In this document: piece after piece, positions 8,496 to 57,947 of the stretch
Layout of the letters: each line of letters opens with the position of its first letter
Numbering within the stretch: position 1 is the stretch's first letter
DNA from: Perognathus longimembris pacificus
Taxonomy: Eukaryota > Chordata > Mammalia > Rodentia > Heteromyidae
Direction of reading: 5' to 3'
Length of the DNA: 64,000 nucleotides
Assembly (NCBI RefSeq): GCF_023159225.1
Contig: NC_063181.1
Span: 25,322,073 to 25,386,072 of the forward strand
Made by a program: the position numbers and the translations under genes
The notes under the pieces: model-generated
What the model was told of the DNA's origin: nothing
Databases searched by the model: none
The model's input: only the letters and a program-made list of their open reading frames with translations

Positions 8496-9679
8496 AAAAG
8501 AGAAAGGGTTGGCAAAGAACCAATAGTCCCTTCATCAAGTGGGCTAAAGACTTACAAAGAGACTTCTCTGATGAGGAAATGAGAATGGCCAAGAGACATA
8601 TGAAAAAGTGCTCTACATCACTGGCCATAAAAAAAATGCAAATCAAAACAACATTGAGATTCCATCTCACCCCAGTAAGAATGTCCTTTATCAATAAAAC
8701 TAACAATAACAGTTGTTGGAGGGGATGTGGCCAAAAGGGAACCCTACTTCATTGTTGGTGGGAATGTAAACTGGTTCAGCCACTCAGGCAAGCAGTATGG
8801 AGATTCCTCAGAAGGCTAAATGTAGAACTCCCCTATGACTCAGCAACCCTACTTTTGGGTATCTATCCAAAAAAACCACAAACAAAATCACAGTAAAGCC
8901 ACCAGAACAACAATGTTCATCGCAGCATAATTTGTCATAGCTAGAATCTGGAACCAGCCCAGATGCCCCTCAGTAGACGAATGGATCAGGAAAATGTGGT
9001 ACATATACACAATGGAATTTTATGCCTCTATCAGAAAGAATGACATTGTCCCATTTGTAAGGAAATGGAAGGACTTGGAAAAAGTTATACTAAGTGAAGT
9101 GAGACAGATCCAAAGAAACATGGACTCTATGGTCTCCCTTATTGGGAGTAATTAGCACAGGTTTACGCAAGTCACAGCAGAGGATCACAAGAGCCCAATA
9201 GCCATACCCTTATGAACACATAAGATGATGCTAAGTGAAATGAACTCCATGTTATGGAAATGATTGTTATATCACAGTTTTAACTACTTTCAACCTCCCA
9301 TGTGTATCTGTAGCTTCTACTATTGATGATGTTCTTGTATCATCTTCCTGTGGTTGTACCTACACTATCTCTGTAATCTTATCTGAGTATATTGGAAACC
9401 ATGTATACTGGTATTGGAACTAGGAAATTGAAAGGGAATACCAAAATCGAGAGACACAGGATAAAAAAAGACAAACAACTACAAAAGCAATACTTGTAAA
9501 ACTGTTTGGTGTAAGTAAACTGAACACCTCATGGGGGGAAAGAGAAAGGGGGAGGGGGGAATGAGGGATGAGGTAACAAACAGTACAAGAAATGTATCCA
9601 ATGCCTAACGTATGAAACTGTAACCTCTCTGTACATCAGTTTGATAATAAAAATTTGAAAAAAAAAGAGAAAGGGTTGG
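8496..9679 (+). mobile_element. Young 5'-truncated LINE-1 with 17-bp TSD
   Basis: The insertion spans about 8513-9662. It is bounded by a perfect direct repeat (aaaagagaaagggttgg) at 8496-8512 and 9663-9679; the first A residues on the right merge with the A tail. Content: the last quarter of ORF2, a 3'UTR with a G-rich stretch (9533-9568), AATAAA-like signals near 9644-9650 and a short A tail. The perfect TSD argues for a recent insertion. Confidence 0.96.
8513..9155 (+). pseudogene. L1 ORF2 C-terminal fragment
   Basis: Translates to the C-terminal segment of L1 ORF2p, including the CWRGCG cysteine motif (near 8715) and ending at the stop at 9153-9155. The longest open piece (8579-8896) is cut by a frameshift and a stop after the TLLLGIYPK block. 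It lacks EN and RT, so it is non-functional. Confidence 0.9.
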
Positions 9680-10417
9680 TGTAATATGAGTAACTATTCT
9701 TCTATGTTGTAGTATTCTTATTACTTGCAATCAAGGTCTAGAGACACTAGTGATTTTAAGGAATAAAAAATGATTCATGTATAATCTATATTTGGGAGGA
9801 GGAGAGGGCCTACAGCTAAAAATAGAGAATATACAAAGTTTCATAATTCTGTCTCTCTCCCTTTCTTGCTCCTTTATCTTCACATGTGGATATTTTGTTC
9901 TATCAAACTTGTCTCTTTTTTTGTATTTTAAGAGAGCTATGCTTGTACAGCACACAATACATTTGTTAATTGATTCATATCTTGTACAATCAAAAATTCC
10001 GTCATTGTCTTTAACCTGCTCACACCAGAATTCATCGGTACTAATAATGGGAAGGATAATAAGTGAATCTAAATTTAATCCTGTTTTGTTTAACCTCTCT
10101 TTCTAATTAATGGCTGCTCATACTATCACTGCTAATGGATCATGTGATCATTCTCTAGATCTGTGCAGGAAGCACTATATTGTTATCAACTCAAATTCAA
10201 AGGGGGGAGCATATCCAGCTTCCATTGTCCCCTTGGTGACATTTCACCTAATGAAGAGGAATTTTGAAATATAAAAACCAAATGGGCCCTCTCCTTTAAT
10301 TGAGCTCTTGATTCTGGATTGCATCCTAGGTTTCTTCACACATTTTAGAATCTAAATGGTTATAAGGGTTATGAACTCTAGTCAGTAGGTTGCAGTGAGG
10401 AATAGTAGGGACAATAG
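9680..10417. other. No gene or repeat recognised
   Basis: Unique sequence between two L1 insertions. Small open frames on both strands (9731-9955, 9777-10106) show no homology I recognise. Confidence 0.45.
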
Positions 10418-10426
10418 AGTAAAGGA

Positions 10427-12378
10427 GAGAGGACTTCTGGGAAGATGGCGGAGGAGCAGTGGAGCTCTAGCTGAGCTCCCTCCAACATCACAGTTTTCCC
10501 ATGCCAGAGAAACTTTTACTTCTAGAAAGACAGCCAGAGTAAGTTATAACAGTACAGGGATTCTGGCCAGGAAGGAAAAATTGACTTTGCTGGTCTGAAA
10601 ACACAGATTTGAGCTCCAGGTGGCATCCTGCCGCCACGCAAGTGCTGGTGCCGGTACAGCGCCCCACACTCCCCGCAGCTAAAGCATTCAACGGAGACCC
10701 AGGTGGTGGCATACAGACAGATTACAGGCTGAGAATGGATGAGCTGAAATCACAGAGAAAGCGTGAGTACCCCATGAAAGACACTCTCACTTGAGCCCAT
10801 GGAGCAGCTTTGGGAGGTAGCCCTTCCCCCACCACCAGAGCAAAAAGCCATCTTTGACACTGGCATAGGGTCAGACCAGACTGTAGCTAAAGCCTGCCTG
10901 GGGAAAGCAAGGACAAATGGGCCATCTTTGAGAAGGGCAAGAGGGACCAACCAGTGAGATCCAGCTCCGCTCAGGAGAACGACACCTGCCCAGGCAGGGG
11001 GCTTGTCCTGGGCCTAGGCTCAGCTAGAGGTGCCCCAGCCTGCTCGCCAGAATTCCTAAATTAAAACTGAAAGTGGAGAGCAGCTACCAGCGGCACGGAA
11101 CAGCCACATGGGAGAACAAACAGTTCCCGAGACAGATAAATGGTCCCGTTTAGAACCCAATTCCCAGCCCGAAATGGAGCTGAACTCCATACCCAGCTCT
11201 GCTCAGGAGGCCGCCCCACCCAGGAGGGAGGAACCTCCCCCAGGTAAGCAACTCTCAGCTGGGTAAATCAGACCAGAGGCGCCCTGCCCCTGCTGAGTCC
11301 ACAGCCTATTCTGAGCCAGACGTTAAAGGCAGCGGCCTCACAGCAGACGGAGGAGCCATGGTTCCTGAGACTGTTCACATCCCCATCTACAGTGGATGCC
11401 CAAGGCCTACCTGCAAGCTGTGGGAACCACAGAGACCCAGGATTTTACTAACAGGGGAAGAGGGTCAAAGCAGATCCACCCCCTATGAGCTGAAAGCAAG
11501 TAAAACCAGCCAAGCAGTAGAATAGACTGCATACCATCACAAGGAAACCAGAGACTGTAGAAAGCCCACCTAAACAAGGAAGACTTTTTTTTTCTCAAAA
11601 CATTTTTAAGCTTTCTTTTACATTTTTATTTTTTTCCTATATTTTCATTTCTGAAACATCATTGGTTTGTTTTTGTTTTCCATTTTTACCTGTTGGTTCT
11701 ATCAAATTGTTTTTTTGTTGTTGTTCTTTTTTTCTGTTTTCTTTTTAAATAACTTTTCTCTGTTATGTGCATCTGTCTTCCAGTATTTTTTCTTTGTTTC
11801 TCTCTTTGCATTCTTTTTCTTTAAAAATTACTTTCCTATGAATAACACCTCCACTCTTTACTGCTAGCTCTCCATTGTCTACCATTTTAACCTTGTTGTT
11901 TCTAGTAATTCTACTCTCCTCCACATTTCCACGTCACTGAAACTAAACCAAAATCATCACCCTCCCGTACATTTTACTCTATTCTTATTACTACCTCTAA
12001 CTTACCCTCCTGACTTACTTCTAGGTCCTCCAGATTCCATTGACTCCTGGTTATTGGATAGAGGGTATCCCTGCTTAATCTGAGTGAATAAAAGGGGTTC
12101 ATAGAGAAAGCCAGTCCAAAAAGAACTTAATATAAGAACAAGAATTGCTCATAGGGTTGTAACAGTAAATAAGTAACTACTGAATACAGGGCTCACGATT
12201 GGTTGTTATATTGAAATTATATTCTTTAGGAACACCAAAGCTAATTTTATATACAGGTATAAAAGGTATCTGTATATAATTGTGAGGGTCTAAGATTTAT
12301 ACAACAGTGCTTGGTAAGGTCTGCTTTGGGTCTTAAACAGTGCTCACAGGTGCTTGTAGATTGGCTTTCCCAATCCTA
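10427..12378 (+). promoter_or_regulatory. L1 5'UTR with internal promoter, YY1-like start
   Basis: About 1.95 kb between the element's 5' end and ORF1. It begins with a YY1-like motif, gaagatggcgg, at 10441-10451, in the place where L1 promoters of other mammals carry one to set the start site. The first 1.1 kb is GC-rich. 11585-11870 is strongly T-rich, a common feature of the 3' half of mammalian L1 5'UTRs. The frames at 10395-10598 and 10609-10794 are not regarded as genes. Confidence 0.8.
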
Positions 12379-13512
12379 ATGGGCAGAAGAAACACAAGAA
12401 AGATGGCAAACAATGGAGTCTTATCTCCCACTCAAAACAAGCAGGAAGCAGAGCAGTCAATCAAAGACATAAAAGAGAACCCTCAAAATGCTCTACAAAG
12501 TCTACTGGTAAATATGATAAATGAAAAGTTTGAATCTCTTCAGTCAATTATTCTAGAGCGTGAGGAGGCAAAGCAAAAATTAATGGAGAATTTCATGGCC
12601 TCCACAAATAGAAAGATAAATGAACTTCAAGAGTCAAATGAAAAGATAGCTGCTACCCAGGTAAAAGATTTGAGAGACAACACTCAAAACCAATATAATG
12701 AAGTAAATGAAGTAAAGAAGTCCATGCAGGACCTAACAGATATGTATAGCAAGGACATGGAGATCATCAGGAAAGTCCAGTCAGAAGGAAAAGAGATTCG
12801 AAATCAAGTAGGTAGCCTACAGTCCCAACTAACTGAAGCAGAGGATAGAATTTCAGGAGCTGAAGATTACCTAGAATCTATGGTGGAAGATCAAAAATCA
12901 ATACAAAACCAATCCAATTGACATAACAGATCACTCCAGGAGATTCAAGATACAATCAGGAAGCCCAATTTAAGGATAATAGCTATTGAGGAAAACCTGG
13001 ATAAGGAAGTTAATGAAATAGGCATCCTACTTAACAGACTAATAGCCGAGAACTTCCCAAATATCCAGAAGGAAAGGCCTATACAGATACAAGAAGCATT
13101 TAGAACCCTAAAATGACCAGACCAGAATAGGACATCCCACCGACATATTGTGATCAAAACAGGATCAGTAGAGTACAAGGAAAGAATCCTTAAAGCTTCT
13201 AGGGAGAAGAAAACAATCACATATAAAGGAAAAGCAATCAGAATTATCCCAGACTTAGCAGAGACCATGAAAGCAAGGAGAGGCTGGAATGAGGTATGCC
13301 AAACCCTAAATAAAAATAACTACCAACCAAGAATATTGTACTCAGATAAACTCACATTCATAGCCTAAGGTCAAATAAAAGTCTTCCACAGTAAGGAAAA
13401 ACTGAAACAATATATCTCCACCAAACCATCGTTACACAAAATCCTCAAAAATTTACTAAACAGGGAAAATAATCAAGATCCCAATGCAGACAGAGAAACG
13501 AACCCTAAATAG
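12379..13512 (+). pseudogene. L1 ORF1 pseudogene
   Basis: The first in-frame ATG is at 12379 (MGRRNTRK); the frame can be opened further upstream only from a GTG at 12340. Open to 12921: a long, charged, heptad-rich stretch, consistent with the ORF1p coiled coil. After several stops and frameshifts the RRM and C-terminal domain can still be followed (13150-13368, with KGKAIRIIPDLAETMKAR and YQPRILYSDKL), and the frame ends at a tag at 13510-13512. The intact protein would coat L1 RNA as a trimer; this copy cannot. Confidence 0.88.
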
Positions 13513-13570
13513 TAAACCAGAATATCAGATCAACAAATGGGGAGGCTCAGCCTTTAACAAGATAGGGATA

Positions 13571-15302
13571 ATGAAAGGAACAAATGATCAGCTCTCAATC
13601 CTAACTCTCAACATTGATTGACTTAATTTGCCAATCAAAAGACATAGGCTCATAAGTTGGATCAAAAATCAAGATCCATCTTTCTGCTGCCTCCAAGAGA
13701 CACATCTATCCAGCAAAAGTAAACATCTTCTAAAAGTGAAAGGCTGGAATCAAATCTATCAACAAATGGCCCCCATAAGCCGGCTGGAGTTGCAATCCTA
13801 GCATCAGACAAAATTGACTTCAAATTAAAAAAGGTAAGAAGAGACAAAGAAGGATAATACATACTAGTAAAGGGATCTCTCCTACAGGAAGATATAACCA
13901 TCCTAAATATTTACACACCAAATATATGAGCACCCAACTTCATCAAACAAACACTACTGACTCTAAAAACAATCATAGACCCAAACACATTGATAGTTGG
14001 GGACTTTAACGCTCCACTATCACCTCTGGACAGATCAACACGCCAAAAACTGAACAAAGAAACCACAAAACTAAACATCTGCATTGACCAACTAGACTTA
14101 ATGGACATCTACAGAATATTCCACCCAGCAACAACAGAATACACATTCTTCTCAGCGGCACATGGACCATTCTCAAAAATAGATCACATCTTAGGGCATA
14201 AAGAAAATCTGTACAAATTCAGAAGTATCAAAACCATTCCCTGCATTCTCTCAGACCACAATGGAATAAAATTAGAACTCAACACAAACAACCACCACAG
14301 AAAATCCTAAAGCTCATGGAGACTAAACGACATACTGCTGAACCATCAGTGGGTCACTGAAGAAATTAAAATGGAAATTCAAATGTTTATGGAAGTCAAC
14401 CAAGATGAGGACACAAAGTACCAGCTCCTTTGGGACACAGCAAATGTAGTACTCAGAGGAAAATTTATATCTCTGAATGCATACACCAACAAACTGGAGA
14501 AACAGCAACTCAATCATTTAAGGAAGCACCTGAATTTCCTTGAAAGAGAACAACAAGCCAAACTCCAAGTCAATAGATGGAAGCAAATAATTAAAATCAA
14601 ATCAGAATAAAATCAATTAGAGATAAAAAAAATCAAAAGAATCAACAAAATAAAGAGTTGGTTCTTTGAAAAAATCAACAAGATAGACAGACACCTAGCA
14701 AACCTGACCAAAAAACGAAGGCAGCACACTCAAATAAACAAGAAAAGAGATGAAACAGGTAACATCACCACAGAAACAACCAAAATTCAGACCATAATAA
14801 GGGTCTATTTTGCAAACCTTTATGCCAACAAATTCAAGAACTTGGAAGAAATGGATAATTTCCTAGAAAAAATTCATATCCTCAAACTGAACCATGAAGA
14901 TTTAAACCTTCTAAACAGACCCATATCCAGCACTGAAATAGAAACAGCAATAAGTGATCTCCCATCCAAGAAAAGCTCAGGTACAGATGGATTCACAGCA
15001 GAACTCTACAAGGCCCTCAAAACAGAACTCACTCCAATATTTCTCAAACTCTTCAATGAAATTGAAAGAGAAAGTTCACTAGCATACACATTCTATGAAG
15101 CCAGTATAACCCTCATCCCCAAACCATGCAAGGACTCATCACAGAAAGAGGACTATAGACCGATTTCTCTGACGAACATAGACTCAAAAATTCTCAACAA
15201 AATTCTGGCCAATCAACTTCAACAGGTCATCAAAAAATCATACATAATGATCAAAGTGGATTCATCCCAGGGATGCAAAGTTGGTTCAATATACGCCAGT
15301 CA
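13571..15302 (+). pseudogene. L1 ORF2 pseudogene, 5' part (EN to RT start)
   Basis: The ATG at 13571 is followed by LTLNID and a stop where functional copies read LNINGLN. Endonuclease blocks remain visible: CCLQETH (about 13690), VGDFN (about 13995), SKIDHILG (about 14175) and SDHNGIKL. Then come the linker and the first RT blocks (KKSSGTDGFTAELYK and the DYRPISLTN region). A frameshift near 15240 precedes the break at about 15302, where LTR-like sequence takes over. The ORF2 segment of about 75 codons between this break and 19937 is missing. Confidence 0.9.
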
Positions 15303-15458
15303 ACCTTCTCCTCGGCAACCTTCTCCTCAGCTCAGCACAATCCACAAGAACACGTTTTGTTCCTTCTGCGGGCGGGAGGTTAAAGCCGAGTGTTCTTTCA
15401 TAGTTTGGCATTCAGGCATCCCCCTGATAGATAGGGGGAAGGGGTCCAGAGCCGCCCA
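15303..15458 (+). repeat. Truncated 5' LTR (3' part only)
   Basis: About 155 bases matching the last 150 bases of the right-hand LTR (shared blocks include ctcagctcagcacaatccac and the gataggggg region). The short motif ccttctcctcggcaa is repeated at its left edge, directly at the junction with L1 sequence, suggesting microhomology at a deletion breakpoint. No convincing tRNA primer-binding site follows. Confidence 0.72.
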
Positions 15459-15492
15459 ACCTATGGAGCCAGATCGTGGGGTGGAAACGCAC

Positions 15493-19403: not shown

Positions 19404-19936
19404 AGCAGATATTGGAGATTCACGCTGCCCTTCCCCCAGCCCTGGGGCAGTGTGGGAGGGAACCCTTCTCACCTTCCGGCCTCAACCAGAAGAGAAACAA
19501 GAGGTCCCCACTTCTCGGCCTGGCCACGTGTCTAATGGCAGAGGCCTGGCCCTTGGGGGATTGTGGTCCCCGCCCACAGAAGAAGTTTCATGACATCACC
19601 TGATGGGCAGCCCAGCTCAGCCAATTAGCTAGTCACCCCAAGTCCTCCCCTTCCACCTTTGTCACCATAATAAATTCTTCTGCCCGCCCTCTGGAAGGGG
19701 GAAATGTATGGACCATCGAATTGTCTCCCCGATGCCTCTCTCTGCCCCTGTTCCTGACATGTGAGGGGGGATGGGTGGGACGGGGGCCTCGGCAACCTTC
19801 TCCTCAGCTCAGCACAATCCACAAGAACACGTTTTGTTCCTTCTGCGGGCTGGAGGTTAAAGCTGAGTGTTCTTTCATAGTTTGGGATTCAGGCATCCCC
19901 CTGGGAGATAGGGGGAAGGGGGTCCAGAGCCCCACA
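19404..19936 (+). repeat. 3' LTR of the interrupting element
   Basis: About 530 bases, GC-rich, with a CCAAT-like motif (cagccaattag, 19618-19628), AATAAA at 19669-19674 and a 3' portion duplicated at 15303-15458. The 3' boundary near 19936 is set by resumption of L1 ORF2. The 5' boundary is a guess from the polypurine tract and could be several hundred bases further left. Confidence 0.62.
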
Positions 19937-21809
19937 ACAGACAGGGATGTCCACTCTCTCCCCTTCTCTTTAACATAGTACTATAATTCCTAGCCAGAGC
20001 AATTAGGCAAGAAGAAAATATAAAGGGGATCCAAATAGGAAAAGATGAAGTTAAACTTTCTCTCTTTGCAGATGACATGATCCTATACCTAAAGAACCCC
20101 ATAGACTTTACCCCCAAGCTACTAGAGCTGATCCAAAACTTTGGCAAAGTTGCAGGATATAAATAAACCGTCAAAAATCAATGGCCTTTCTCTATGCTAA
20201 TGACCCGAAGACCGAGGCTGAAATCAGGAAAGCAACTCCTTTTGCAATAGCCCCCCAAAACATAAAATACCTAGGAATAACCTTAACCAAAGAAGTGAGA
20301 GACCTCTACGATGAGAACTTTAAAAACATGGAAAATGAAATTAAGGCAGAAATAAGGAAATGGAAAAACCTCCCATGCTCCTGGATTGGGAGGATTAATA
20401 TAATCAAAATGGCAATATTGCCAAAGGCGATCTACAAATTCAATGCAATACACATTAATATCCCAACACCCTTCTTTAAGGAAATAGAGGAAGCAAACCT
20501 GAAACTCATATGGAACAATAAAAGGCCTAGAATAGCAAAAACAATCCTAAGCAGAAAGAACGGTGCTGGAGGAATCACAACACCCAACTTCAAGCTGTAT
20601 TATAAAGCTATAGTAATAAAAGCAGCTTGGTATTGGCACTGGAACAGGCCTGAAGACCAATGGAACAGAATTGAAGACCCAGGAATGAACCCACAGAACT
20701 ACGCCTACTCAATCTTTGATAAAGGAGCTAAAACAATAGTATGGAAGAAAGATAGCCTCTTTAACAAATGGTGCTGGCCAATCTGCATTAGCACATGCAA
20801 CAAACTAAAACTAGATCCTTATATGTCACCTTTCACCAAAATCAATTCCAAATGGATCAAAGATTTCAAAATCAAAATAGACACCCTGAAAACACTAAAG
20901 GAAGGAGTAGGAGAAACACTTGGGCTCTTTAGCGCAGGATGGAACTTCCTTAACAAACACCCAGAAAGGCTACAAATCAAAGAAAGGTTGGACAAATGGG
21001 GCTACATCAAACTGCAGAGCTTCTGCATGGCAAAAGACATAGCTCACAAGATAAACAGAAAGCCCACAGATTGGGAGAAGATCTTTACTGGCCATTCAAT
21101 GGACAAAGGCCTCATATCTAAAATTTATGCAGAACTAAAAAAATTAACTTCCTCCAAATCAAAACCGCAAAGAACCAATAGCCCCCTCATCAAGTGGGTT
21201 AGAGACTTAAAAAGAGACTTCTCTGATGAGGAAAAGAGAAAGGCCAAGAGACACAAGAACAAGTGCTCTACATCACTGTCCATGAAAGAAATGCAAATCA
21301 AAACAACATTGAGATTCCATCTCACCCCAGTAAGAATGTCCTTTATCAATAAAACTAACAATAACAACTGGTGGAGGGGATGTGGCCAAAGGGAACCCTG
21401 CTTCATTGTTGGTGGGAATGTAAACTGGTTCAGCCACTCTGGCAAGTGGTATGGAGATTCCTCAGAAGGCTAAACATAGAACTCTCCTATGACCCAGCAG
21501 CCCCACTTTTGTGTGTCTATCCAAAAGACCACAAACATAATCACACTAAAGCCACCAGCACAACTATGTTCATCGCAGCACAATTTGTCATACCTCGAAT
21601 CTGGAACCAACCCAGATGCCCCTCAGTAGAAGAATGGATCAGGAAAATGTGGTACATATACACAATGGAATTTTATGCCTCTATCAGAAAGAATGACATT
21701 GCCCCATTTGTAAGGAAATGGAAGGACTTGAAAAAAGTTATACTTACTTGAAGTGAGCCAGACCCAAAGAAACATGGACTCTATGGTCTCCCTTATTGGG
21801 AATAATTAG
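19937..21809 (+). pseudogene. L1 ORF2 pseudogene, 3' part
   Basis: Resumes in the RT palm ([11 protein letters not shown] block, then IRQEENIKG), passes the FADD catalytic box (about 20070) and continues in a 430-codon open stretch (20181-21473) covering thumb and C-terminal segment. After a frameshift it runs through 21371-21751 to the ancestral stop tag at 21807-21809. The cysteine motif is altered: the copy reads WWRGCG where functional copies have CWRGCG. Confidence 0.9.
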
Positions 21810-22328
21810 CAGAGGTTTAGGCAAGTCACAGGAGAGGATCACAATAGCCCAATAGCTATACCCTTATGAACACATAAGATAATACTAAGTGAAATGAACT
21901 CCATGTTATGGAAACGATTGTTATATCATAGTTGTAACTACTTTCAACGTGCCATATGTAACTGTTGCCTCTATTATTGATGGTGTTCTTGTATCACCTT
22001 CCTGTGATTGTACCTACACTGTCTCTGTATCTTATCTGAGTATATTGGAAACCGGGCATACTGGTATTAGAACTAGGGAATTGGAAGGGAATACCAAAAT
22101 CGAGAGACACAGGGTAAAAAAGACAAACAATTACAAAAGCAATACTTGCAAAACTGTTTGGTGTAAATGAACTGAACAACTCGGGGGGGGAACGGTAAGG
22201 AGGAGGGGGGAGGGGGGAATGAGGGATGAGTTAACAAACAGTACAAGAAATGTATCCAACGCCCAATGTATGAAACTGTAACCTCTCTGTAATTCAGTTT
22301 GATAATAATATATATATTAAAAAAATAC
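21810..22328 (+). other. L1 3'UTR with G-rich tract
   Basis: The 3'UTR of the decayed full-length L1. 22184-22225 is a G-rich purine stretch with several runs of five or more G, the kind of polypurine/G-quadruplex-prone tract conserved in many mammalian L1 3'UTRs. AATAA-type signals lie near 22302-22310, before the A-rich end. Confidence 0.8.
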
Positions 22329-22645
22329 AGTAAAGGAAGGATAAGGTTAGAATGAAAACTTTGAGAAAGTATATCCAAGCTTCCAGTCCCATGCCATTTG
22401 AAGTCAGATTCTATAAGGCTTTGACTGGCTCTGAGAATGTGCACTTTGATTTCTCTGTGACAATTTTCACCCAAAGAAATATAGAAGATGATAACCTCTG
22501 AAAAAGGTGCCTACTTATTTTTGAGCAGGAAAAAATAGATAAATTAGAAGCAAGCCATCTTGATAGGCTATTGCTTTTAAAAACAGGCATCTTTTTATAT
22601 TCATTTGGTGATGCTTTCAACTTCATTATGATTACTTCAGAGAAG
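22329..22645. other. Unique spacer
   Basis: About 300 bases between the L1 TSD and the solo LTR. No feature recognised. Confidence 0.5.
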
Positions 22646-30014: not shown

Positions 30015-30249
30015 AAAATGCCTTTAGTTGGGGCTGGGAATATGGCCTAGTGGCAAGAGTGCTTGCCTCCTACACATGAAGCTCTCGGTTGAATTGCCAG
30101 CACCACATATATGAAAAACGGCCAGAAGGGGCGCTGTGGCTCAGGTGGCAGAGTGCTAGCCTTGAGCGGGAAGAAGCCAGGGACAGTGCTCAGGCCCTGA
30201 GTCCAAGGCCCAGGACTGGCAAAAAAAAAAAAAAAAATGCCTTTAGTTG
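30015..30249 (+). mobile_element. ID-ID dimeric SINE (IDL-Geo-like) with 16-bp TSD
   Basis: A complete dimer. Unit 1 begins ggggctgggaatatggccta at about 30030; unit 2 begins gccagaaggggcgctgtgg at 30121; it ends aggactggc plus a 17-A tail. The perfect TSD aaaatgcctttagttg lies at 30015-30030 and 30234-30249. Both units have tRNA-type A/B boxes for Pol III. A long A tail and L1-style TSD show L1-driven insertion. I read this dimer as a geomyoid-rodent marker. Confidence 0.94.
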
Positions 30250-32985: not shown

Positions 32986-33226
32986 CATAACATTTTTTTT
33001 TGTTTTGTTTTGTTTTTTTTTGCCAGTCCTGGGGCTTGAACTCAGGGCCTGAGGACTGTCCCTGGCTTCTTTTTGCTCAAGGCTAGCACTCTGCCACCTG
33101 AGCCACAGCGCCACTTCAGGCCTTTTCTGTTTATGTGGTACTGAGGAATTGAACCCAGGGCTTCATGTATACAAGGCAAGCACTCTTGCCACTAGGCCAC
33201 ATTCCCAGCCCCGTGCATAACATTTT
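32986..33226 (-). mobile_element. ID-ID dimeric SINE with TSD
   Basis: Minus-strand dimer: A tail (as T) at 32993-33028, gccagtcctggggcttgaac, the second unit ending acagcgccacttc, and the ID head ending attcccagcccc at 33212. An 11-bp direct repeat, cataacatttt, lies at 32986-32996 and 33216-33226. Confidence 0.92.
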
Positions 33227-39397: not shown

Positions 39398-39460
39398 ATG
39401 TCAGACAAGATAAGTCTTTTCTTCATAAATCTTTATTAATGTGGTTAATCTCTTGTAGTC

Positions 39461-40595
39461 CCTCTCTACTTTTTCTTTCAAATTTTTATTATCAAACTGA
39501 TGTACAGAGAGGTTACAGTTTCATAGGTTAGGCATTGGATACATGTTTTGTACTGTTTATTACCTTGTCCCTCATACCCCCTCCCTCCTCCCCCTTTCCT
39601 TCCCCCCCCCCCCCGAGGTGTTCAGTTCACTTACACCAAACAGTTTTGCAAGTATTGCTTTTGTAGTTGTTTGTCTTTTTTTACCCTGTGTCTCTCAATT
39701 TTGGTATTTGCTTTCAATTTCCTAGTTCCAATACCAGTATACACAGTTTCCAATATACTCAGATAAGATTACAGAGATAGTGTAGGTACAACCACAGGAA
39801 GGTGATACAAGAACATCATCAATAATAGAAGCTACAGATACAGATGAGACGTTGAAAGTAGTTACAACTGTGATATACCAATTGTCTCCATAACATGGAG
39901 TTCATTTCACTTAGCATCATCTTATGTGTTCATAAGGGTATAGCTATTGGGCCTTGTGATCCTCTGTTATGACTTGCCTAAACCTGTCCTAATTATTCCC
40001 AATAAGGGAGACCATAGAGTCCATGTTTCTTTGGGTCTGGCTCACTTCACTTAGTATAATTTTTTCCAAGTCCTTCCAATTTCCTTACAAATGGGGCAAT
40101 GTCATTCTTTCTGATAGAGGCATAAAATTCCATTGTGTATATGTACCACATTTTCCTGATCCATTCTTCTACTGAGGGGCATCTGGGTTGGTTCCAGATT
40201 CTAGCTATGACAAATTGTGCTGCGATGAACATAGTTGTGCTGGTGGCTTTAGTGTGATTATGTTTGTGGTCTTTTGGATAGACACACAAAAGTGGGGCTG
40301 CTGGGTCATAGGGGAGTTCTATGTTTAGCCTTCTGAGGAATCTCCATACTGCTTGCCAGAGTGGCTGAACCAGTTTACATTCCCACCAACAATGAAGTAG
40401 GGTTCCCTTTTGGCCACATCCCCTCCAAGAATTGTTATTGTTAGTTTTCTTGATATATGACATTCTTACTGGGGTGAGATGGAATCTCAATGTTGTTTTG
40501 ATTTGCATTTCTTTTATGGCCAGTGATGTAGAGCATTTTTTCATATGTCTCTTGGCCATTCTCATTTCCTCATCAGAGAAGTCCTCTCTACTTTT
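39461..40595 (-). mobile_element. Young 5'-truncated LINE-1 with 13-bp TSD
   Basis: The insertion spans 39474-40582, minus strand. TSD cctctctactttt lies at 39461-39473 and 40583-40595. Its 3'UTR carries the G tract (C-rich at 39580-39616 on this strand). ORF2 is cut just upstream of the [12 protein letters not shown] block, almost the same truncation point as the copy at 8513-9662. Confidence 0.95.
39989..40582 (-). pseudogene. L1 ORF2 C-terminal fragment
   Basis: The last about 200 codons of ORF2, ending at the ancestral stop at 39989-39991. Open for 172 codons (40047-40565), then a frameshift near 40075 diverts the last 30 codons. The cysteine motif reads SWRGCG rather than CWRGCG. Confidence 0.9.
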
Positions 40596-48459: not shown

Positions 48460-48671
48460 AAGAGGAAATAAGAGGGCTGGGGATATGGCCTAGTGGCAAG
48501 AGTGCTTGCCTCTTGCCTCGTATACATGAGGCCCTGGGTTTGATTCCCCAGCACCACATATACAGAAAACGGCCAGAAGTGGCACTGTGGCTCAAGCGGC
48601 AGAGTGCTAGCCTTGAGCAAAAAGAAGCCAGGGACAGTGCTCAGGCCCTGAGTCCAAGGACCAGGACTGGC

Positions 48672-48711
<40 letters not shown>

Positions 48712-51388: not shown

Positions 51389-51399
51389 TTTTAATATTT

Positions 51400-51401
<2 letters not shown>

Positions 51402-51440
<39 letters not shown>

Positions 51441-51516
51441 AGTGCTGAAACAACTTTTTTCTTTTTTTTTTTTTTTTTTTTTTATTATCAATTGAACATA
51501 AATTTTTTTTTTTTTT
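51402..51516 (-). repeat. Compound poly(A) tail with short transduced segment
   Basis: On the sense strand: an A run (51503-51516), a 19-base spacer, an AATAAA (51481-51486), a second A run (51455-51484, one G), the unique 15-mer gttgtttcagcactc (51440-51454), and a terminal run of about 38 A (51402-51439). Two long A tracts around non-L1 sequence are the signature of a 3' transduction: read-through of the element's own signal in its source locus. Confidence 0.82.
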
Positions 51517-51701
51517 ACAAGGTGCTGTGCAAAGAGGGTGCAGTTACATAGTAGGGCATTGTGTACATTTCTTGTGATATCTTACAACCTGTTTTCCCAT
51601 CCCTTGTCTAGGTCAGGTAGACCCATATGCAGTATACAATGTATCAAGCACATATACAGTGTTCACAGACTTGGTCTCTACTGTCTCTCCATCTCCCTTT
51701 G

Positions 51702-54700
51702 TTAACAGTCATATATCAGGGAGATCATGCCCCTTTGTTTTCTGTGTTCTAGGCTTGTCTCACTCAACATTATTTGTTCGAGTTCTGACCATTTCCCTGC
51801 AAATAACAATATTTCACCATTCCTAATCGCTATGTAGTATTCCATTGTGTATAAGTACCATATTTTTTGGATCCATTCATCTGTGGAGGGGCATCTGGGT
51901 TGTTTCCAAATTTTGGCTATTGTGAATTGTGCTGCGATAAACATGGAAGTACAAATGTCCTTTTGATATCTTGGGTTTTGCTGTTTAGGATAGATGCCTA
52001 GGAGTGGTATGGCTGGGTCATAGGGTAGGTCTATATTGAGCTTTTTGAGAAACCTCCATACTGTTCTCCAAAGTGGCTGTACTAATTTGCACTCCCACCA
52101 ACAATGGAGAAGGGTTCCTCTTTCCCCACAGCCCCTCCAGCATTTGTTGTTTCCTGAGTTCAGAGTATAGGCCATTCTAACTGGGGTGAGGTGGTATCTC
52201 AGGGTTGTTTTTATTTGCATTTCCTTTACTAGCAGGGATGTTGAGCATTTCCTCATGTGTTTCTTTGCCATTTTTATATCTTCTCTTGTGAAGTCTCTCT
52301 TTAGCTCTTTTGCCCATTTCCTAATAGGTTTATTGGGCTTGGAGGGGCTTAGTTTTTTGAGTTCTCTGTAGATGACAGATATCAGGCCTTTGTCTGTTGC
52401 TGTGCTGGTAAATATCCTTTCCCATATCGTTGGCTGTCTTTCTATTTTGGTGGCTATGACCTTAGCTGTGCAGAAACTTTTTAATTTGTAGTAGTCCCAT
52501 TTGTTGAGTCTTTCCCCTATTTGTTGTGCGCCTGGGACTCTATTCAGGAAGTTCCTTCCTGTGCCTATAAGTTCTAGTGTCTTTCCTACTCTGTCCTTCA
52601 GTAGTTTCAAGGATTCAGGTCTGATGTTGAGGTCCTTGATCCATTTTGAGTTGATCTTGGTGCATGGTGATAGGCTTGGGTCTACTTTGAGTTTTCTGCA
52701 TATGGCTGCCCAGTTCTCCCAGCACCAGTAGTTGAAGAGGCTATGTTTATTCCATTGTATGTCTTTAGCTCCTTTGTCGAATATCAGTTGGCTGTAAGAG
52801 TGCGGTTTTATTTCTGGGTCTTCAATTCTAATCCACTGGTCTTCCGATCTGTTTTTATACCAATACCATGCTGTTTTTGTTATGATGGCCTTGTAGTAGA
52901 GCTTGAAGTCTGGTATGGTGATACCTCCTGCACTATGTTTTTTGCCTAGAATTGCTTTGGCTATTCTAGGTTTTTTGCTGTTCCATATGAACTTATGGAT
53001 TGGTTTCTCTATTTCAGTGAAGAATGTGGCTGGGATTTTGATAGGTATTGCATTGAATTTGTATAACAATTTGGGCAGTATGGCCATTTTCACTATATTG
53101 ATTCTGCCTACCCATGAGCATGGGAGGTCTTTCCATCTCCTTGTGTCTTCTTTGATTTCCCTTATTAGATTTTTGTAGTTTTCATTGAATAGGTCCGTCA
53201 CGTCCTTGGTTAAGTTGATCCCTAGGTACTTTATTCTTTTTTTGGCTACTGTAAATGGAATCGTTTCCATAATTTCCTTTTCTGTTTGTCTATTGCTGGT
53301 GTACAGAAAAGCTGCTGACTTTTGTGGATTGATTTTGTATCCTGCTACTTTGCCAAATTGGTTTATTAGATGTAGGAGTTTGGGTACTGAGTTTTTTGGG
53401 TCCTTGAGATATAAGATCATGTCGTCTGCGAATAGGGATAACTTGATTTCTTCCTTGCCGATGTGGATCCCTTTGATGTCCTCCTCTTGCCTTATTGCTA
53501 TGGCTAGGGATTCCAGTACTATGTTGAACAGAAGTGGGGAGAGTGGGCATCCTTGTCTTGTTCCTGTGTTTAGGGGGAATGATTTAAGTTTCTCTCCATT
53601 TAATATGATATTAGCAGTTGGTCTGTTGTATATGGCTTTTATTGTTTTGAGGAATGTTCCATCTATTCCTGTTCTCTCCAAAGCTTTTAATAGGTATGGA
53701 TGTTGTATTTTGTCAAAGGCTTTTTGGGCATCGACTGAGATAACAATGTGATTCTTGATTTTAGTTCTGTTTATGTGGTGAATTACATTGATTGATTTAC
53801 GGATGTTGAACCATCCTTGTGACTGAGGGATGAAGCCTACTTGGTCATGATGTATGATATTCTTGATCACTTTCTGGATCCTGTTAGCTAATATTTTATT
53901 GAGGAGCTTTGCATCTGTGTTCATTAGTGATATTGGTCTGTAGTTCTCTTTTTTTGTTGGATCTTTGCCTGGTTTGGGGATGAGTATGATATTAGCTTCG
54001 TAGAATGAGTTCGGGATTTTTCCCTCCGTTTCTATTTCGCGGAAGAGTTTGAGGAGTATTGGAATTAGCTCCTCACTAAAGGTTTTGTAGAATTCATTGG
54101 TGAATCCATCTGGGCCTGGGCTTTTCTTAGTAGGGAGGTTCTTGATTACCTCCTGTATCTCACCGTAAGTTATTGGTTTATTTAGTTGATTTATTTCTTC
54201 TTGGTTCAGTTTGGGCAGTTTGTACTTCTCTAAGAATTGATCCATTTCTGTAAAATTATTGTTTTTTGTTGAGTAGAGGTTTTGGAAATAGCTCCTTATG
54301 ATTGTTTGAATATCGTGTGTATTTGTTGTAATTTTTCCTGTGGAGTCCCTGATTTTACGTATATGAGTCTCTTCTCTTCTTTTTTTTGTGAGTCTTGCAA
54401 GGGGTCTGTCAATTTTGTTTATTTTCTCAAAGAACCAGCTTTTAGTCTTATTTATTTGTTGAATGGTCTTTCTATTTTCAATCAGATTTATCTCTTCTTT
54501 AATCTTTGTAATCTCTCCCCTCCTAGTCGTTTTAGATTCTGTCATTTCTTGTTTCTCCAGTTGTTTTAGTTTCATCGTGAGGGTATTCACCTGCTCTGCT
54601 TCCATTCTTTTAATGTGGGTACTGAGTGCAATGATCTTGCCCCTCAGTACTGCCTTAGCTGTGTCCCATAGGTTTCTTTGTGATGTGTTTTCTTTGTCAT

Positions 54701-55529
54701 TGTGGCTTATGAATTCGTTGATTTCATCTTTAATTTGATCTGTGGCCCAAGTGTTGGATAGCAGCGTGGGGTTTAGCCTCCAAGAGTGTGTATAGGCTCT
54801 GTGGTATCCTTTGTTGTTGAGGGTTACCTTTAATCCACTGTGATCAGATATAATACATGGGATGATGTCAATTCTTTTGTATTTGCTGAGGTTCTTTGTG
54901 TGGGCTATGACGTGGTCTATTTTGGAATATGATCCATGGGCTGCTGAAAAGAAGGTGTATTGGGTCTCTGTAGGGTGGAAGGTTCTATATAGGTCTGTTA
55001 GATCCATTTGGGCAATGGTGTTATTTAGGTCCTCAGCTCCCTTACTAATCCTCTGGGTGTTGGATCTGTCTCTTGGAGAGAGAGGAGTATTAAAGTCACC
55101 CACTATGATTGTGTTTGCATCTATCTTGCTCTGTAATTCTGTGAGAATTTGCTTGACATATGTCGGGCCTCTTTTGTTCGGTGAGTATACATTTATCACC
55201 GTGATGTCTTGATTCTGGATTTTTCCTTGTATCAATATGTAGTGTCCTTCTTTGTCTTTTTGAGTGGACTTTAAAGAGAAATCCAGCTTGTCTGAGATCA
55301 GGATGGCTACACCTGCCGTTTTGGTGGGTGCATTTGCTTGGTAGATCTTGCTCCATCCTTTCATTCGAAGCCTGTTTTTGTCCCTTGCTGTAAGGTGGGT
55401 CTCTTGTAGACAACAGATGTCAACTTTTTGCTTGCGGATCCATTCTGCCAGTCTGCTCCTCTTGATCGGGGAGTTTAAGCCATTTATATTTAAAGAGATC
55501 AAGGATAAGGGTGTTTTTTCTCCTTCCAT
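51702..55529 (-). CDS. ORF2: L1 ORF2 protein: endonuclease and reverse transcriptase, intact
   Basis: 1275 codons from an ATG at 55529, exactly the length of human L1 ORF2p. It is the enzyme of target-primed reverse transcription: it nicks TT/AAAA-like sites and copies L1 or SINE RNA at the nick. Endonuclease residues 1-240 carry N14, E43, Y115, D145, N147, T192, D205, D229 and H230 at the same positions as I know them from human L1. In the RT domain, D600 lies in VDAQKAFDK and D702/D703 in FADD (700-703), with GCPLSPL between. The C-terminal segment has the CX3CX7HX4C knuckle starting at C1130. The start ATG lies 51 bases after the ORF1 stop, so translation depends on reinitiation, as in other mammals. 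No stop, frameshift or catalytic change is visible; activity is inferred, not shown. Confidence 0.98.
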
Positions 55530-55580
55530 TTTCTTGTTGGGCTGTTTTTTCCTGTTGTTTTTTTTTTTTTCTTCTTGTCT

Positions 55581-56750
55581 TTAGTGAGCTTGTGTTTCTG
55601 CTGGACTTTGGCTATTGAAGTTTCTTTCTGAATCTGTCTGTGTGTCTTTTACGATCTCTGTTGGGTGGGCTTCCCCTCTTAATATTCGCTGTAGGGCTGG
55701 TTTTTTATTCACATACTCCTTTAGCTCCTCTTTGGTGTGGAAAGATCTGGTTCTCCCTTCGAATGTGAACTCCAGTTTCGCTGGATATTTGATCCGAGGT
55801 TGTAAATTGTTATTCTGAAGTACTTGGATGGTGTTCTTCCACTCACTTCGAGCTTGGTAAGTTTGTGTGGATAAGTCGGATGTTATTCGAATCCTCTTCC
55901 CATTGAAAAAAGTTTCCTTCTTCGCTTTGGCTGAATTCAGAATTTGCTCTTTAATCTTGAGGTCTGTAGTCTTGAATATTATGTGCCTTGGGGTGGTTTT
56001 CCTGGGGTCTGGCCTGCCAGGTGTCCTATAGGCTTCGGTTACCTGGATGGGGTCCCCTGTGAGATTGGGGAAGTTTTCTGCAATAACTTTATTGAGAACA
56101 TGATTAAGCCCTCTGCTCTGATATTCGGCTCCTTCTTCTATTCCAATTATACGCAGATTATATCTCTTGTCTTTGTCCATTAGTTCCTGGAGTAATCTTC
56201 CCTGAAGCTTCACCTTTTCTTGGAGTGTGGTCATTTTCTGGTTGTTGTCAGCTGCTTCATCGTCCAGGCGAGAGATTCTGGATTCCATATGGTCCACTCT
56301 TTGTGTTATGGTTTCAATTGCGGAGTTTATGGATGTCAGAGAGCTATTCATGGTTGTCATATCAGCTCTGATCGTGGAAATTTCTTCCTTTAAAGAGTTG
56401 TATTTTAAATCTATTTTTTCATGCATTTCAATTCTCAGGGTGTGGAGATTTTCTTTAAAGGCGGCTTGCATTGTATCCATTTTTGCTTCCATTTCTTTAA
56501 ACGAGGCTTGCATTGTATCCAGTTTTGCTTCCATTTCTTTCTTGGCTTCCTGGGTGTCCTTCCAGATTTCCGCTCTAAACTCCTGGAATTGTTTTCTGAT
56601 TTCATTTCTGACGGTTTCGATCATTCCTGTTAACATGTCCTCATTTGCTTTTTTATTCTCCATCTCCTCTCCAGTCGTGCTGCTTTTTGGAGCTGGCGAG
56701 TTGGCTTGTCCTTTGATGAACTGAGTTATGTTTCTTTGTGATTTGCGCAT
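55581..56750 (-). CDS. ORF1: L1 ORF1 RNA-binding protein, intact
   Basis: 389 codons from the ATG at 56750 (MRKSQRNITQFIKG). The frame stays open 27 codons further upstream but only to a GTG, so I place the start at the ATG. It is the trimeric nucleic-acid chaperone that packages L1 RNA in cytoplasmic RNPs. By residue: basic N-terminus 1-40; long charged heptad coiled coil about 41-195; RRM about 197-290 with YNLRIIGI and PRHIIFK; C-terminal domain about 291-370 with QARSEWKNT and YPAKLEF; and a polar tail. The coiled coil holds a tandem 14-residue repeat at 73-86 and 87-100 that differs at two positions. Human ORF1p is shorter (338 residues); the excess is mainly coiled coil and tail. Confidence 0.96.
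   Translation of the reverse strand: MRKSQRNITQFIKGQANSPAPKSSTTGEEMENKKANEDMLTGMIETVRNEIRKQFQEFRAEIWKDTQEAKKEMEAKLDTMQASFKEMEAKMDTMQAAFKENLHTLRIEMHEKIDLKYNSLKEEISTIRADMTTMNSSLTSINSAIETITQRVDHMESRISRLDDEAADNNQKMTTLQEKVKLQGRLLQELMDKDKRYNLRIIGIEEGAEYQSRGLNHVLNKVIAENFPNLTGDPIQVTEAYRTPGRPDPRKTTPRHIIFKTTDLKIKEQILNSAKAKKETFFNGKRIRITSDLSTQTYQARSEWKNTIQVLQNNNLQPRIKYPAKLEFTFEGRTRSFHTKEELKEYVNKKPALQRILRGEAHPTEIVKDTQTDSERNFNSQSPAETQAH
56467..56551 (-). repeat. 42-bp tandem repeat in ORF1 coiled coil
   Basis: Two copies of a 42-base unit (14 codons, two heptads: MEAKLDTMQASFKE and MEAKMDTMQAAFKE). In-frame heptad multiples keep the coiled-coil register. A comparable length-variable region with 14-residue units is known in mouse L1 ORF1p. 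Confidence 0.9.
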
Positions 56751-57932
56751 CTGGAAGTCTGTGTAGTTCTTCCCTCCCTTCTGTGTAGGCGTGTCTGCGT
56801 CAGCAGGTGCTGTCGCTGTGGCCCCGCCCACCAGTGCAGGGCACGCCTATCAGAGCGGGCGCTTTCGCCGGGGCCCCGCCCTCCTGTGCACTGTGAGTCC
56901 CCTACAACAGGCACTTAAGTGGGGTCTGCCTCCCAGAGCGAGCCCTGGGTTGTTGGGTTGTGCTTGCGCCCTCCCGCGAGTCCGTTGGGGGGGGGAAGCA
57001 GTATGTGTGGGGCCCAGTGGGATCGACTGTCCGGGTGTGGCTTGGCACCCTCAGACCTCGCCTCCGCTTCGAGGAGGGGGAACGAGATCAGGCTCAGGTG
57101 ACCCTGCTGGGCTGGTATTGCCCACCAGCGCCTGTGATTTTAGTTGTAAGAGTCCGCAAGGTCTAGGCGCCTCGGGTGGGGCTTGCCCTGCCGGCCGTCC
57201 CTGGCCCCTGTTGGGAAGGGGACGGGGCCGGTTCTGCCAGTTCAGGAACCTTTGGGGGCTTGGGGCTGTTCCGCCCTTCCCCTGCTAGACTGGCTTCCCA
57301 GTGCCTGCTGGGAGCTTCCCGCCTGATTTGGGGAATCTTTGTTCCCACGGGAGTGGGGAGGGGGAGGGAGGGAGATATATCGTCTTTGTCGGGCTTGGGT
57401 CTCCCGTTGGGGGAAGGGATTATGGGGGACTCACTTTTGCTGCTTTGTGTGCGTGTCCCGCACCGCCGTTGGCCCTTCAGGGGTTGGCGAAGTGTCGTGG
57501 TGGCTCCCCCGTTCCCTCTTTCTGCCGCGCTGGGTTCCCTTGTCCGAATCCGGTGTGGACCCGAACTTCTCGTCGCTGCTGGGTGTGTCTTGGTCCGCAC
57601 CCTGCTTTGTGTCCGTGGGGTCTCCCGCTATATGGATTCTGCGCTCCTGGCAACCTGTCTGCCGATCGCCGGGTTTCCCTTTCCCAGCCTGACCCTGTTT
57701 GGGCCAGGGCCGGCTGGTGGGGGGAGGGTGCCCCGATTAATCTCCGGCTCCGTGTAGGTTTTCGGTTCTTCTTTTTTTGCTCCTTTTTGTTTTCCTGCGT
57801 TTCTCCACTGCTTCTGGATGCTGGTTTTGCTGGGTTCTTGGTGGAGTGTTGGGTGTTGGAGTTCCCAGCTCGCTATTCAGTTGGTGCGAGTCGGGGTGCC
57901 TCCCTATTGTCTCGGCGCCATCTTTCTCCATC
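56751..57932 (-). promoter_or_regulatory. L1 5'UTR, CpG-rich promoter with YY1-like site
   Basis: 1.18 kb of GC- and CpG-rich sequence. Its first bases on the sense strand contain aaagatggcgcc (57914-57925), a YY1-type site at the place where it fixes initiation in human L1. No monomer repeats as in mouse L1 are seen. Several long overlapping frames occur on the antisense (plus) strand, most without an ATG; one ATG-initiated antisense frame is at 57422-57757. Confidence 0.85.
57422..57757 (+). other. Antisense ATG frame in the L1 5'UTR
   Basis: 111 codons starting MGDSLLLLCVRV, antisense to the L1 5'UTR and pointing outward into the flank, geometrically like primate ORF0. Its frame extends further upstream (57176) only from a GTG. 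Its composition follows the CpG island, so it may be chance; I see no domain. Confidence 0.3.
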
Positions 57933-57947
57933 TTTTAATATTTTCTT

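What the first reader, a model, noticed from the sequence alone, without database searches (positions are those of the whole stretch)
51389..57947. Complete, possibly retrotransposition-competent LINE-1
Seen: perfect 15-bp TSD, about 38-A terminal tail, YY1-like 5' end, and both ORFs open with ATG starts. ORF2 is 1275 codons, with N14, E43, D145, D205, H230, D600, D702/D703 and the C1130 zinc knuckle all present. Known: these residues are required in human L1. Inference: it inserted recently and may still be active; it could be polymorphic between individuals. Few full-length L1s in any genome are intact.
Basis: partly seen in the sequence, partly recalled or inferred. Interest (0 to 1): 0.75.

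Follow-up and report, generated by a model that had tools for sequence, protein, structure and literature searches.

The report
Very young intact LINE-1 retrotransposon
This is a full-length, intact mobile LINE-1 element in a rodent genome that inserted recently and belongs to a family with many near-identical intact copies; a scrap of DNA at its tail points to a parent copy that is missing from this assembly, so the family was jumping very recently.

Summary
A 6.5-kb LINE-1 (51404-57932, minus strand) has a perfect 15-bp target-site duplication, an A38 tail and intact ORF1 (389 aa) and ORF2 (1275 aa) with all the residues named.

106 of 106 scored ORF1 hits and 36 of 36 scored ORF2 hits (capped lists of best hits) are 100% identical. 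20 of 20 fetched copies are 99.63-99.98% identical; 19 of 20 have both ORFs open. The window copy has no substitution from their majority base over ~6.44 kb, so it probably inserted less than ~0.1-0.2 Myr ago.

New here: 22 bp between two A-tracts look like a 3' transduction. Their only other exact match (C2:21.45 Mb, 29 bp shared) is a site without an L1: the inferred parent is absent from this assembly. ORF1 has Ser at the second Arg of the RR pair required in human and mouse L1, yet this is what has spread. A second L1 lineage of this genome, ~72% identical in DNA, also has young copies with open ORF2.

Activity is untested. It is an L1: a new member of a known kind.

The parts
57933..57947 (.). 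5'-side target-site duplication (15 bp)
   Evidence: identical to 51389-51403
51389..51403 (.). 3'-side target-site duplication (15 bp)
56751..57932 (-). 5' UTR, 1182 bp, 62% GC, CpG o/e 0.59; no tandem array found in it; ATGs only at bases 2 and 12
   Evidence: nothing better than E=0.07 against 9676-12480, which holds the start of the lineage-B ORF1 and its upstream region
57914..57924 (-). YY1-like motif AAGATGGCGCC at bases 9-19 of the element
   Evidence: motif consensus recalled; not above chance by itself
55581..56750 (-). ORF1, 389 aa: coiled coil, RRM-like domain (aa 196-292), dsRBD-like CTD (aa 296-358)
   Evidence: PF02994, PF17490 (whose query began one codon upstream of the ATG); 2ykp E=2.9e-44; 106 of 106 scored genome hits 100% identical
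56450..56540 (-). 42-bp in-frame tandem repeat in the ORF1 coiled coil (2.2 copies, 93%)
55845..55847 (-). ORF1 codon 302 (AGT, Ser) at the second Arg of the conserved RR pair
   Evidence: shared by all 106 scored copies
55530..55580 (-). 51-bp A-rich inter-ORF spacer
51702..55529 (-). ORF2, 1275 aa
54840..55499 (-). ORF2 APE-like endonuclease domain (aa 11-230)
   Evidence: PF03372 E=3.9e-25
53211..53981 (-). ORF2 reverse transcriptase domain (aa 517-773)
   Evidence: PF00078 E=7.6e-47
52089..52142 (-). ORF2 Cys-knuckle C1130-C1134-H1142-C1147
51484..51701 (-). 3' UTR up to the first A-tract; longest G run 3
   Evidence: 51440-51701 tested; nine other L1 3' stretches in the window have runs of 6-13
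51481..51486 (-). AATAAA polyadenylation signal at the start of the first A-tract
51462..51483 (-). first A-tract, A22 (read as the tail inherited from the parent copy)
   Evidence: other family members have their A-tail here
51440..51461 (-). 22-nt tag, read as a 3'-transduced segment
   Evidence: its 21-base pattern has one other exact genomic match, C2:21452758-21452778; 29 bp shared there, no L1 in the 701 bp read
51402..51439 (-). second poly(A) tail, A38

Best explanation
A full-length LINE-1 of a very young family (here 'lineage A') of a rodent. Mechanism: an internal promoter in the 5' UTR makes a bicistronic RNA; ORF1p (trimeric RNA binder) and ORF2p (endonuclease plus reverse transcriptase) bind their own RNA in cis; ORF2p nicks DNA and copies the RNA at the nick (target-primed reverse transcription), leaving an A-tail and a TSD. 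Anatomy, family youth and intactness are shown; the biochemical steps are inferred from homology with known L1s. For this copy the RNA most likely came from a parent L1 inserted at C2:21.45 Mb, ran past the parent's own tail and was polyadenylated in the flanking DNA (3' transduction). No L1 stands there in this assembly, so the parent is segregating or was lost (inferred). The copy is probably competent and probably still polymorphic (inferred).
For: Intact anatomy. Genome-wide: 106 of 106 scored ORF1 hits 100% identical over 389 aa; 36 of 36 scored ORF2 hits 100% identical over 1275 aa; 19 of those 36 lie directly downstream of an ORF1 (lists compared by eye). 20 of 20 fetched copies 99.63-99.98% identical in different flanks; TSD of 10 bp or more found by script in 18 of 20. 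19 of 20 with both ORFs open; 8 of 20 with identical ORF2p. The window copy differs from the majority of the 20 only at gap columns: three extra 5' bases, one private 1-bp insertion, one variable A; 95% upper age 78-212 kyr at assumed rates of 6e-9 to 2.2e-9 per site per year. Transduction.
Against: No activity assay. ORF1 has Ser where 16 of 16 aligned database ORF1s, human ORF1p and the lineage-B ORF1 of the window have Arg; changing both Arg of the pair abolishes retrotransposition of human and mouse L1 (passages in PMC5570191, PMC5120415). ORF2 differs at 37 of 457 columns that are at least 95% identical in up to 120 database relatives. The ORF1 and ORF2 searches score only the best candidates and so favour perfect copies; the window's own copy is in neither list. 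The target site (TTTTAATATTTTCTT/CTGTGG) departs from the canonical TTTT/AA (recalled).
Confidence: 0.93

Rival explanations
1. The element has open frames but its proteins do not work: it was inserted by proteins of another copy (trans mobilisation), and ORF1 Ser302 or some ORF2 change disables it.
For: Ser302 replaces an Arg present in 16 of 16 aligned ORF1s. ORF2 differs at 37 of 457 columns at least 95% conserved and at 11 of 234 columns invariant in 20 representatives.
Against: The exact ORF1p is shared by 106 of 106 scored copies and the exact ORF2p by 36 of 36, so this is the sequence that has been spreading. The 4.7% lies inside the 0-6.2% seen when 19 of the 20 representatives are tested the same way (the 20th: 19.5%).
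Confidence: 0.06
2. The 22-nt insert is not a 3' transduction but a template switch onto another RNA, a later insertion into the tail, or a chance match to C2.
For: The tag is short; its C2 locus holds no L1 in the 701 bp read; a third place (C8) matches 20 of 21 bases and has no L1 either, so near matches do occur by chance.
Against: A-tract, tag, second A-tract and TSD stand in the expected order. The C2 match extends to 29 bp including the A6-G-A6 that would begin the parent's TSD, which C8 lacks. Chance expectation is ~0.003 exact 21-mers by base composition (A-rich words are commoner than that model says); the reversed pattern has 0 hits. None of the 20 other copies has the tag.
Confidence: 0.12
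3. The many identical copies are an assembly artefact or segmental duplications of one locus.
For: None found beyond the high identity itself; only 20 copies were read in full.
Against: The 20 copies lie in different flanking sequences with different TSDs, on contigs of 69-163 Mb.
Confidence: 0.02

Closest known systems
Human L1 (ORF2p 8uw3, ORF1p 2ykp)
   Same: Two-ORF layout, ORF2 co-linear over 1-1272, same catalytic and Cys-knuckle residues, poly(A), TSD; YY1-like 5' end and 3' transductions (human side recalled)
   Different: Ser in place of the second Arg of the RR pair; 42-bp coiled-coil repeat; 5' UTR not compared with human here
Mouse and rat L1
   Same: 42-bp unit repeats in the ORF1 coiled coil, as described for mouse (PMC3600994, passages); the element falls in a rodent clade of the ORF2 tree (UFBoot 99)
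   Different: No tandem array in the 5' UTR (mouse monomers recalled); ORF2 66.2% identical to rat over aa 471-1272; ORF1 32-34% identical to the five aligned rows of rat type
Lineage B, the other L1 of the same genome
   Same: Sister to A in the ORF2 tree (UFBoot 99); young copies with open ORF2
   Different: About 70-73% DNA identity to A, dS 1.2-2.1 where computable, no detected similarity upstream of ORF1, G-rich 3' UTR
Horse L1 lineages 1 and 2 (PMC5872511, abstract and passages)
   Same: Deep L1 lineages coexisting in one mammal with non-homologous 5' UTRs
   Different: Another order; there dated with full family sets, here inferred from a tree and a few copies

Membership tests
Mammalian LINE-1 (L1) | ORF2 with APE endonuclease, RT and C-terminal Cys motif, homologous end to end to L1 ORF2p | tested here: met
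Mammalian LINE-1 (L1) | ORF1 with coiled coil, RRM and CTD of Transposase_22 type | tested here: met
   (the coiled coil is inferred from weak matches and the heptad-like repeat)
Mammalian LINE-1 (L1) | poly(A) tail and variable-length TSD (TPRT hallmark) | tested here: met
   other copies
Mammalian LINE-1 (L1) | phylogenetic position inside mammalian L1 ORF2s | tested here: met
   (rodent clade 99; sister to lineage B 99). The marsupial rows fell among artiodactyls on a long branch, so deep rooting is unreliable
Mammalian LINE-1 (L1) | G-rich tract in the 3' UTR | tested here: not met
   longest G run 3; 4 at most in the last 262 bp of the aligned body of 20 other copies, a stretch that reaches into ORF2. 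Called conserved but of unknown function in PMC3600994 (passage); not treated here as defining for membership
Retrotransposition-competent L1 | both ORFs open with required residues | tested here: met
   one atypical residue, ORF1 Ser302
Retrotransposition-competent L1 | near-identical recent copies elsewhere in the genome | tested here: met
Retrotransposition-competent L1 | jumps in a cell-culture assay | not testable with these tools
   needs a laboratory
3' transduction by L1 | A-tract, non-L1 tag, second A-tract inside one TSD pair; tag found at one other genomic place | tested here: met
   (one further place matches with a mismatch)
3' transduction by L1 | parent L1 present at the tag's source locus | tested here: not met
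   no L1 in the 701 bp read at C2, so this would be an orphan transduction whose parent is not seen; the claim rests on the row above

The most novel reading that the evidence does not exclude
Two L1 lineages that split long ago (A-B distance about 0.9 of the A-squirrel distance in ORF2 protein) are both amplifying in one rodent genome. One of them spreads with an ORF1p lacking the second Arg of the RR pair and with a 3' UTR lacking the G-rich tract, features thought required or conserved.
Probability: 0.6. Interest if true: 0.6.

Novelty: new member of a known kind. Interest (0 to 1): 0.5.

Why it matters
It points to a mammal with a very recent L1 burst: 469 exact 3'-end tags and 287 exact 5'-end tags, with 49 near-full-length pairs for 88 3' tags on contigs C1-C3. 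The empty source site makes population polymorphism directly testable by PCR. The Arg-to-Ser change shared by the young copies is a natural test of which residues of the ORF1p RR pair are really required. Two young, deeply separate lineages in one genome allow a test of the idea that L1 lineages coexist only with unrelated 5' UTRs (PMC5872511, passages).

Tried and rejected
Tried without result: phage collection (no match), viral contigs with ORF1 and genome contigs with ORF2: no relatives. Rfam (gathering threshold) and tRNA scans of the window: none. ORF1 protein search: 27 hits, none over 43% identity. Species by name was not obtained; none of the 120 rows listed names a kangaroo rat. Heteromyidae is only a lead from recalled SINE sequences.

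Considered and dropped: Ser302 as a disabling mutation of this copy alone (shared by 106 of 106 scored copies). Age from neutral decay of the ORFs gave a weaker bound, P(intact)=0.05 at 0.36-0.64% divergence under assumed indel rates, superseded by comparison with other copies. The YY1 motif as evidence by itself: at chance level. ATG depletion of the 5' UTR as a sign of selection: the sense strand has 2 against a shuffle mean of 7.8, but the antisense strand is also low (4 against 9.1), so it is weak. C8:62801835, a one-mismatch match to the tag, as the transduction source: it lacks the A6-G-A6 part and shows no L1.
Full report
What is there. The window (C21:25322073-25386072 of a 2.21-Gb, 6180-contig assembly) holds a minus-strand LINE-1 from 57932 (5') to 51404 (3'), flanked by a perfect 15-bp TSD. 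The 5' UTR is 1182 bp, 62% GC, with a YY1-like motif at bases 9-19 and ATGs only at bases 2 and 12 (mean 7.8 in 1000 dinucleotide shuffles, 3 of 1000 with 2 or fewer; the antisense strand is low too, 4 against 9.1). ORF1 (389 aa) matches PF02994 and PF17490 and human ORF1p 2ykp (E=2.9e-44). ORF2 (1275 aa) matches endonuclease and RT models and human ORF2p over 1-1272.

What kind of L1. The best database ORF2s that cover at least 99% of the protein are 61-64% identical (rabbit, Peromyscus, dingo, donkey and unnamed ones); no ORF1 hit exceeds 43%. In an ORF2 tree (aa 471-1272, 27 rows) the element is sister (UFBoot 99) to the other L1 of the window, 'lineage B', inside a rodent clade (99) with squirrel, rat, Peromyscus and Scotinomys; squirrel as next relative has 78. 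A-B protein distance is ~0.51-0.53 against ~0.57 for A-squirrel, so the two lineages separated early. The marsupial rows fell among artiodactyls, so the root is unreliable. Of 16 A-B segments of 60 codons or more, 10 had computable dS (1.2-2.1, near saturation): dN/dS 0.07-0.17 in 8, 0.38 and 0.43 in 2, i.e. purifying selection, roughly measured. That the host is a kangaroo-rat relative is a guess from recalled SINE sequences.

Conserved residues. ORF2 differs at 37 of 457 columns at least 95% identical in up to 120 relatives, a set heavy in dog, rabbit and horse. With 20 representatives, 11 of 234 invariant columns differ (4.7%); tested the same way, 19 of the 20 others give 0-6.2% and one 19.5%. 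In ORF1, 21 of 73 columns invariant in the other rows (at least 10 with a letter) differ; the same test gives 17 of 58 for a horse row and 2 of 53 for P0001, and 0 of 48 for a rat row, near relatives of horse and rat being set aside. One is notable: Ser302 at the second Arg of the RR pair. Changing both Arg abolishes retrotransposition in human and mouse L1 (passages in PMC5570191 and, for human, PMC5120415), and human R261A alone does so (passages in PMC10202459). The papers number the pair 260/261 or 261/262; by recalled numbering R261 is the first Arg, which is kept here.

Same-family copies. A whole-genome search with ORF1 scored 106 of 19,008 first-look candidates: all 106 are 100% identical over 389 aa with no stop. 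With ORF2, 36 of 154,734 were scored: all 36 are 100% identical over 1275 aa. These are capped lists of best hits, biased to perfect copies, and the window's own copy is in neither, so true numbers are higher. Comparing the lists by eye, 19 of the 36 lie next to an ORF1. 18 of the 20 have ORF1 of 389 and ORF2 of exactly 1275 aa (19 of 21 with the window copy); L046 has an open ORF2 one codon shorter near its start; L049 has a broken ORF2. So 19 of 20 have both ORFs open. 8 of 20 encode ORF2p identical to the window's. Script-found TSDs of 10 bp or more: 18 of 20 (L044 7 bp, L056 none). In the 30 loci L009-L038 (which include the same 20 copies) the 5' 3.6-3.9 kb is 99.35-100% identical; 26 of 30 start within base 22 and 4 at base 230-250.

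Age. Mean pairwise difference of the 21 copies is 0.00114. The window copy differs from the majority of the 20 only at gap columns: three extra 5' bases (two of them shared with L046 and L058), one private 1-bp insertion and one A shared with 8 copies. With no substitution in 6444 bp the 95% upper age is 78-212 kyr at assumed rates of 6e-9 to 2.2e-9. L043 on C2 has no substitution relative to it.

Copy number. An exact 3' UTR 31-mer occurs 469 times and an exact 5' 31-mer 287 times; reversed controls 0. On C1-C3, for which both listings are complete, there are 88 3' hits and 52 5' hits; 49 pair at 6338-6364 bp. So over half of the copies with the exact 3' tag are near full length there; diverged copies are not counted.

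The double tail. The 3' end reads AATAAA..A22, 22 nt, A38, TSD. None of the 20 other copies has the tag; most end in an A-rich tail followed by their TSD, while L046 and L058 have other inserts in the tail. Lineage-B ends in the window lack it. With up to 1 mismatch the 21-base pattern occurs 3 times in the genome: the window, C2:21452758-21452778 (exact) and C8:62801835-62801855 (1 mismatch); the reversed pattern 0 times. At C2, 29 bp match and no 20-mer of the L1 body is present in 701 bp; ~0.003 exact 21-mers are expected by base composition. C8 lacks the A6-G-A6 part and shows no L1. The simplest reading is an orphan 3' transduction: a parent L1 stood at C2 in some chromosome, and the assembled one does not carry it.

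A second young lineage. The best RT-domain hits of the genome are not lineage A: 8 of 8 loci returned are lineage B, and 71 of 150 scored hits have an open frame of 1291 aa or more (read from the table). I sampled 4 of these 71: over 771 bp they are 99.87-100% identical to each other, 94.7-94.8% to a B copy of the window and 72% to A. So B has recent copies with open ORF2 too; its ORF1 was not checked. Coexistence of deep L1 lineages with different 5' UTRs is known in horse (PMC5872511, abstract and passages). A and B fit that rule as far as tested: A's 5' UTR finds nothing better than E=0.07 upstream of the one B ORF1 here, though that B copy may be incomplete at its 5' end.

What is known. 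Length changes by 42-bp and 66-bp units in the ORF1 coiled coil are described in mouse (PMC3600994, passages). My paper searches (listings, plus passages of the papers named and of PMC3102727, PMC4476161 and PMC5335264) showed no description of this family; those by host assumed a kangaroo rat, and the library lacks most subscription papers.

Verdict. Ordinary in kind, unusual in youth and completeness. Active status is likely but untested.

Noticed in passing
window 458-2837(-), 8512-9675(+), 12340-15303 and 19936-22336(+), 39460-40589(-): A second L1 lineage (B), about 91-95% alike among these copies, ~72% to the element. Elsewhere in the genome 4 of 4 sampled copies with open ORF2 are 99.87-100% alike over 771 bp.
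   Followed up: partly
window 15310-15460 and 19787-19938: A 94.7% direct repeat of ~150 bp bounds a ~4.6-kb insertion that splits a lineage-B L1; looks like an LTR-type element. Not examined further.
   Followed up: no
window 51440-51701: The 3' UTR lacks the G-rich tract: longest G run 3, against 6-13 in nine of nine other L1 3' stretches of the window.
   Followed up: partly
L058 and L046, 3' ends: These copies have inserts of their own in the A-tail; L058 may be another 3' transduction.
   Followed up: no
L009, L014, L022, L034 (L009, L014, L022 are the same copies as L039, L044, L052): Four of 30 copies begin at element base 230-250 rather than base 1-22, perhaps a second start site or a truncation hot spot.
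   Followed up: no
window 57737-57931(-): A 64-codon sense uORF starts at base 2 of the element and has a basic stretch near its end.
   Followed up: partly
window 30030-30237, 33005-33212, 48474-48700: Repeated two-part tRNA-like SINE with its own A-tail; resembles, from recall, SINEs of kangaroo rats.
   Followed up: no
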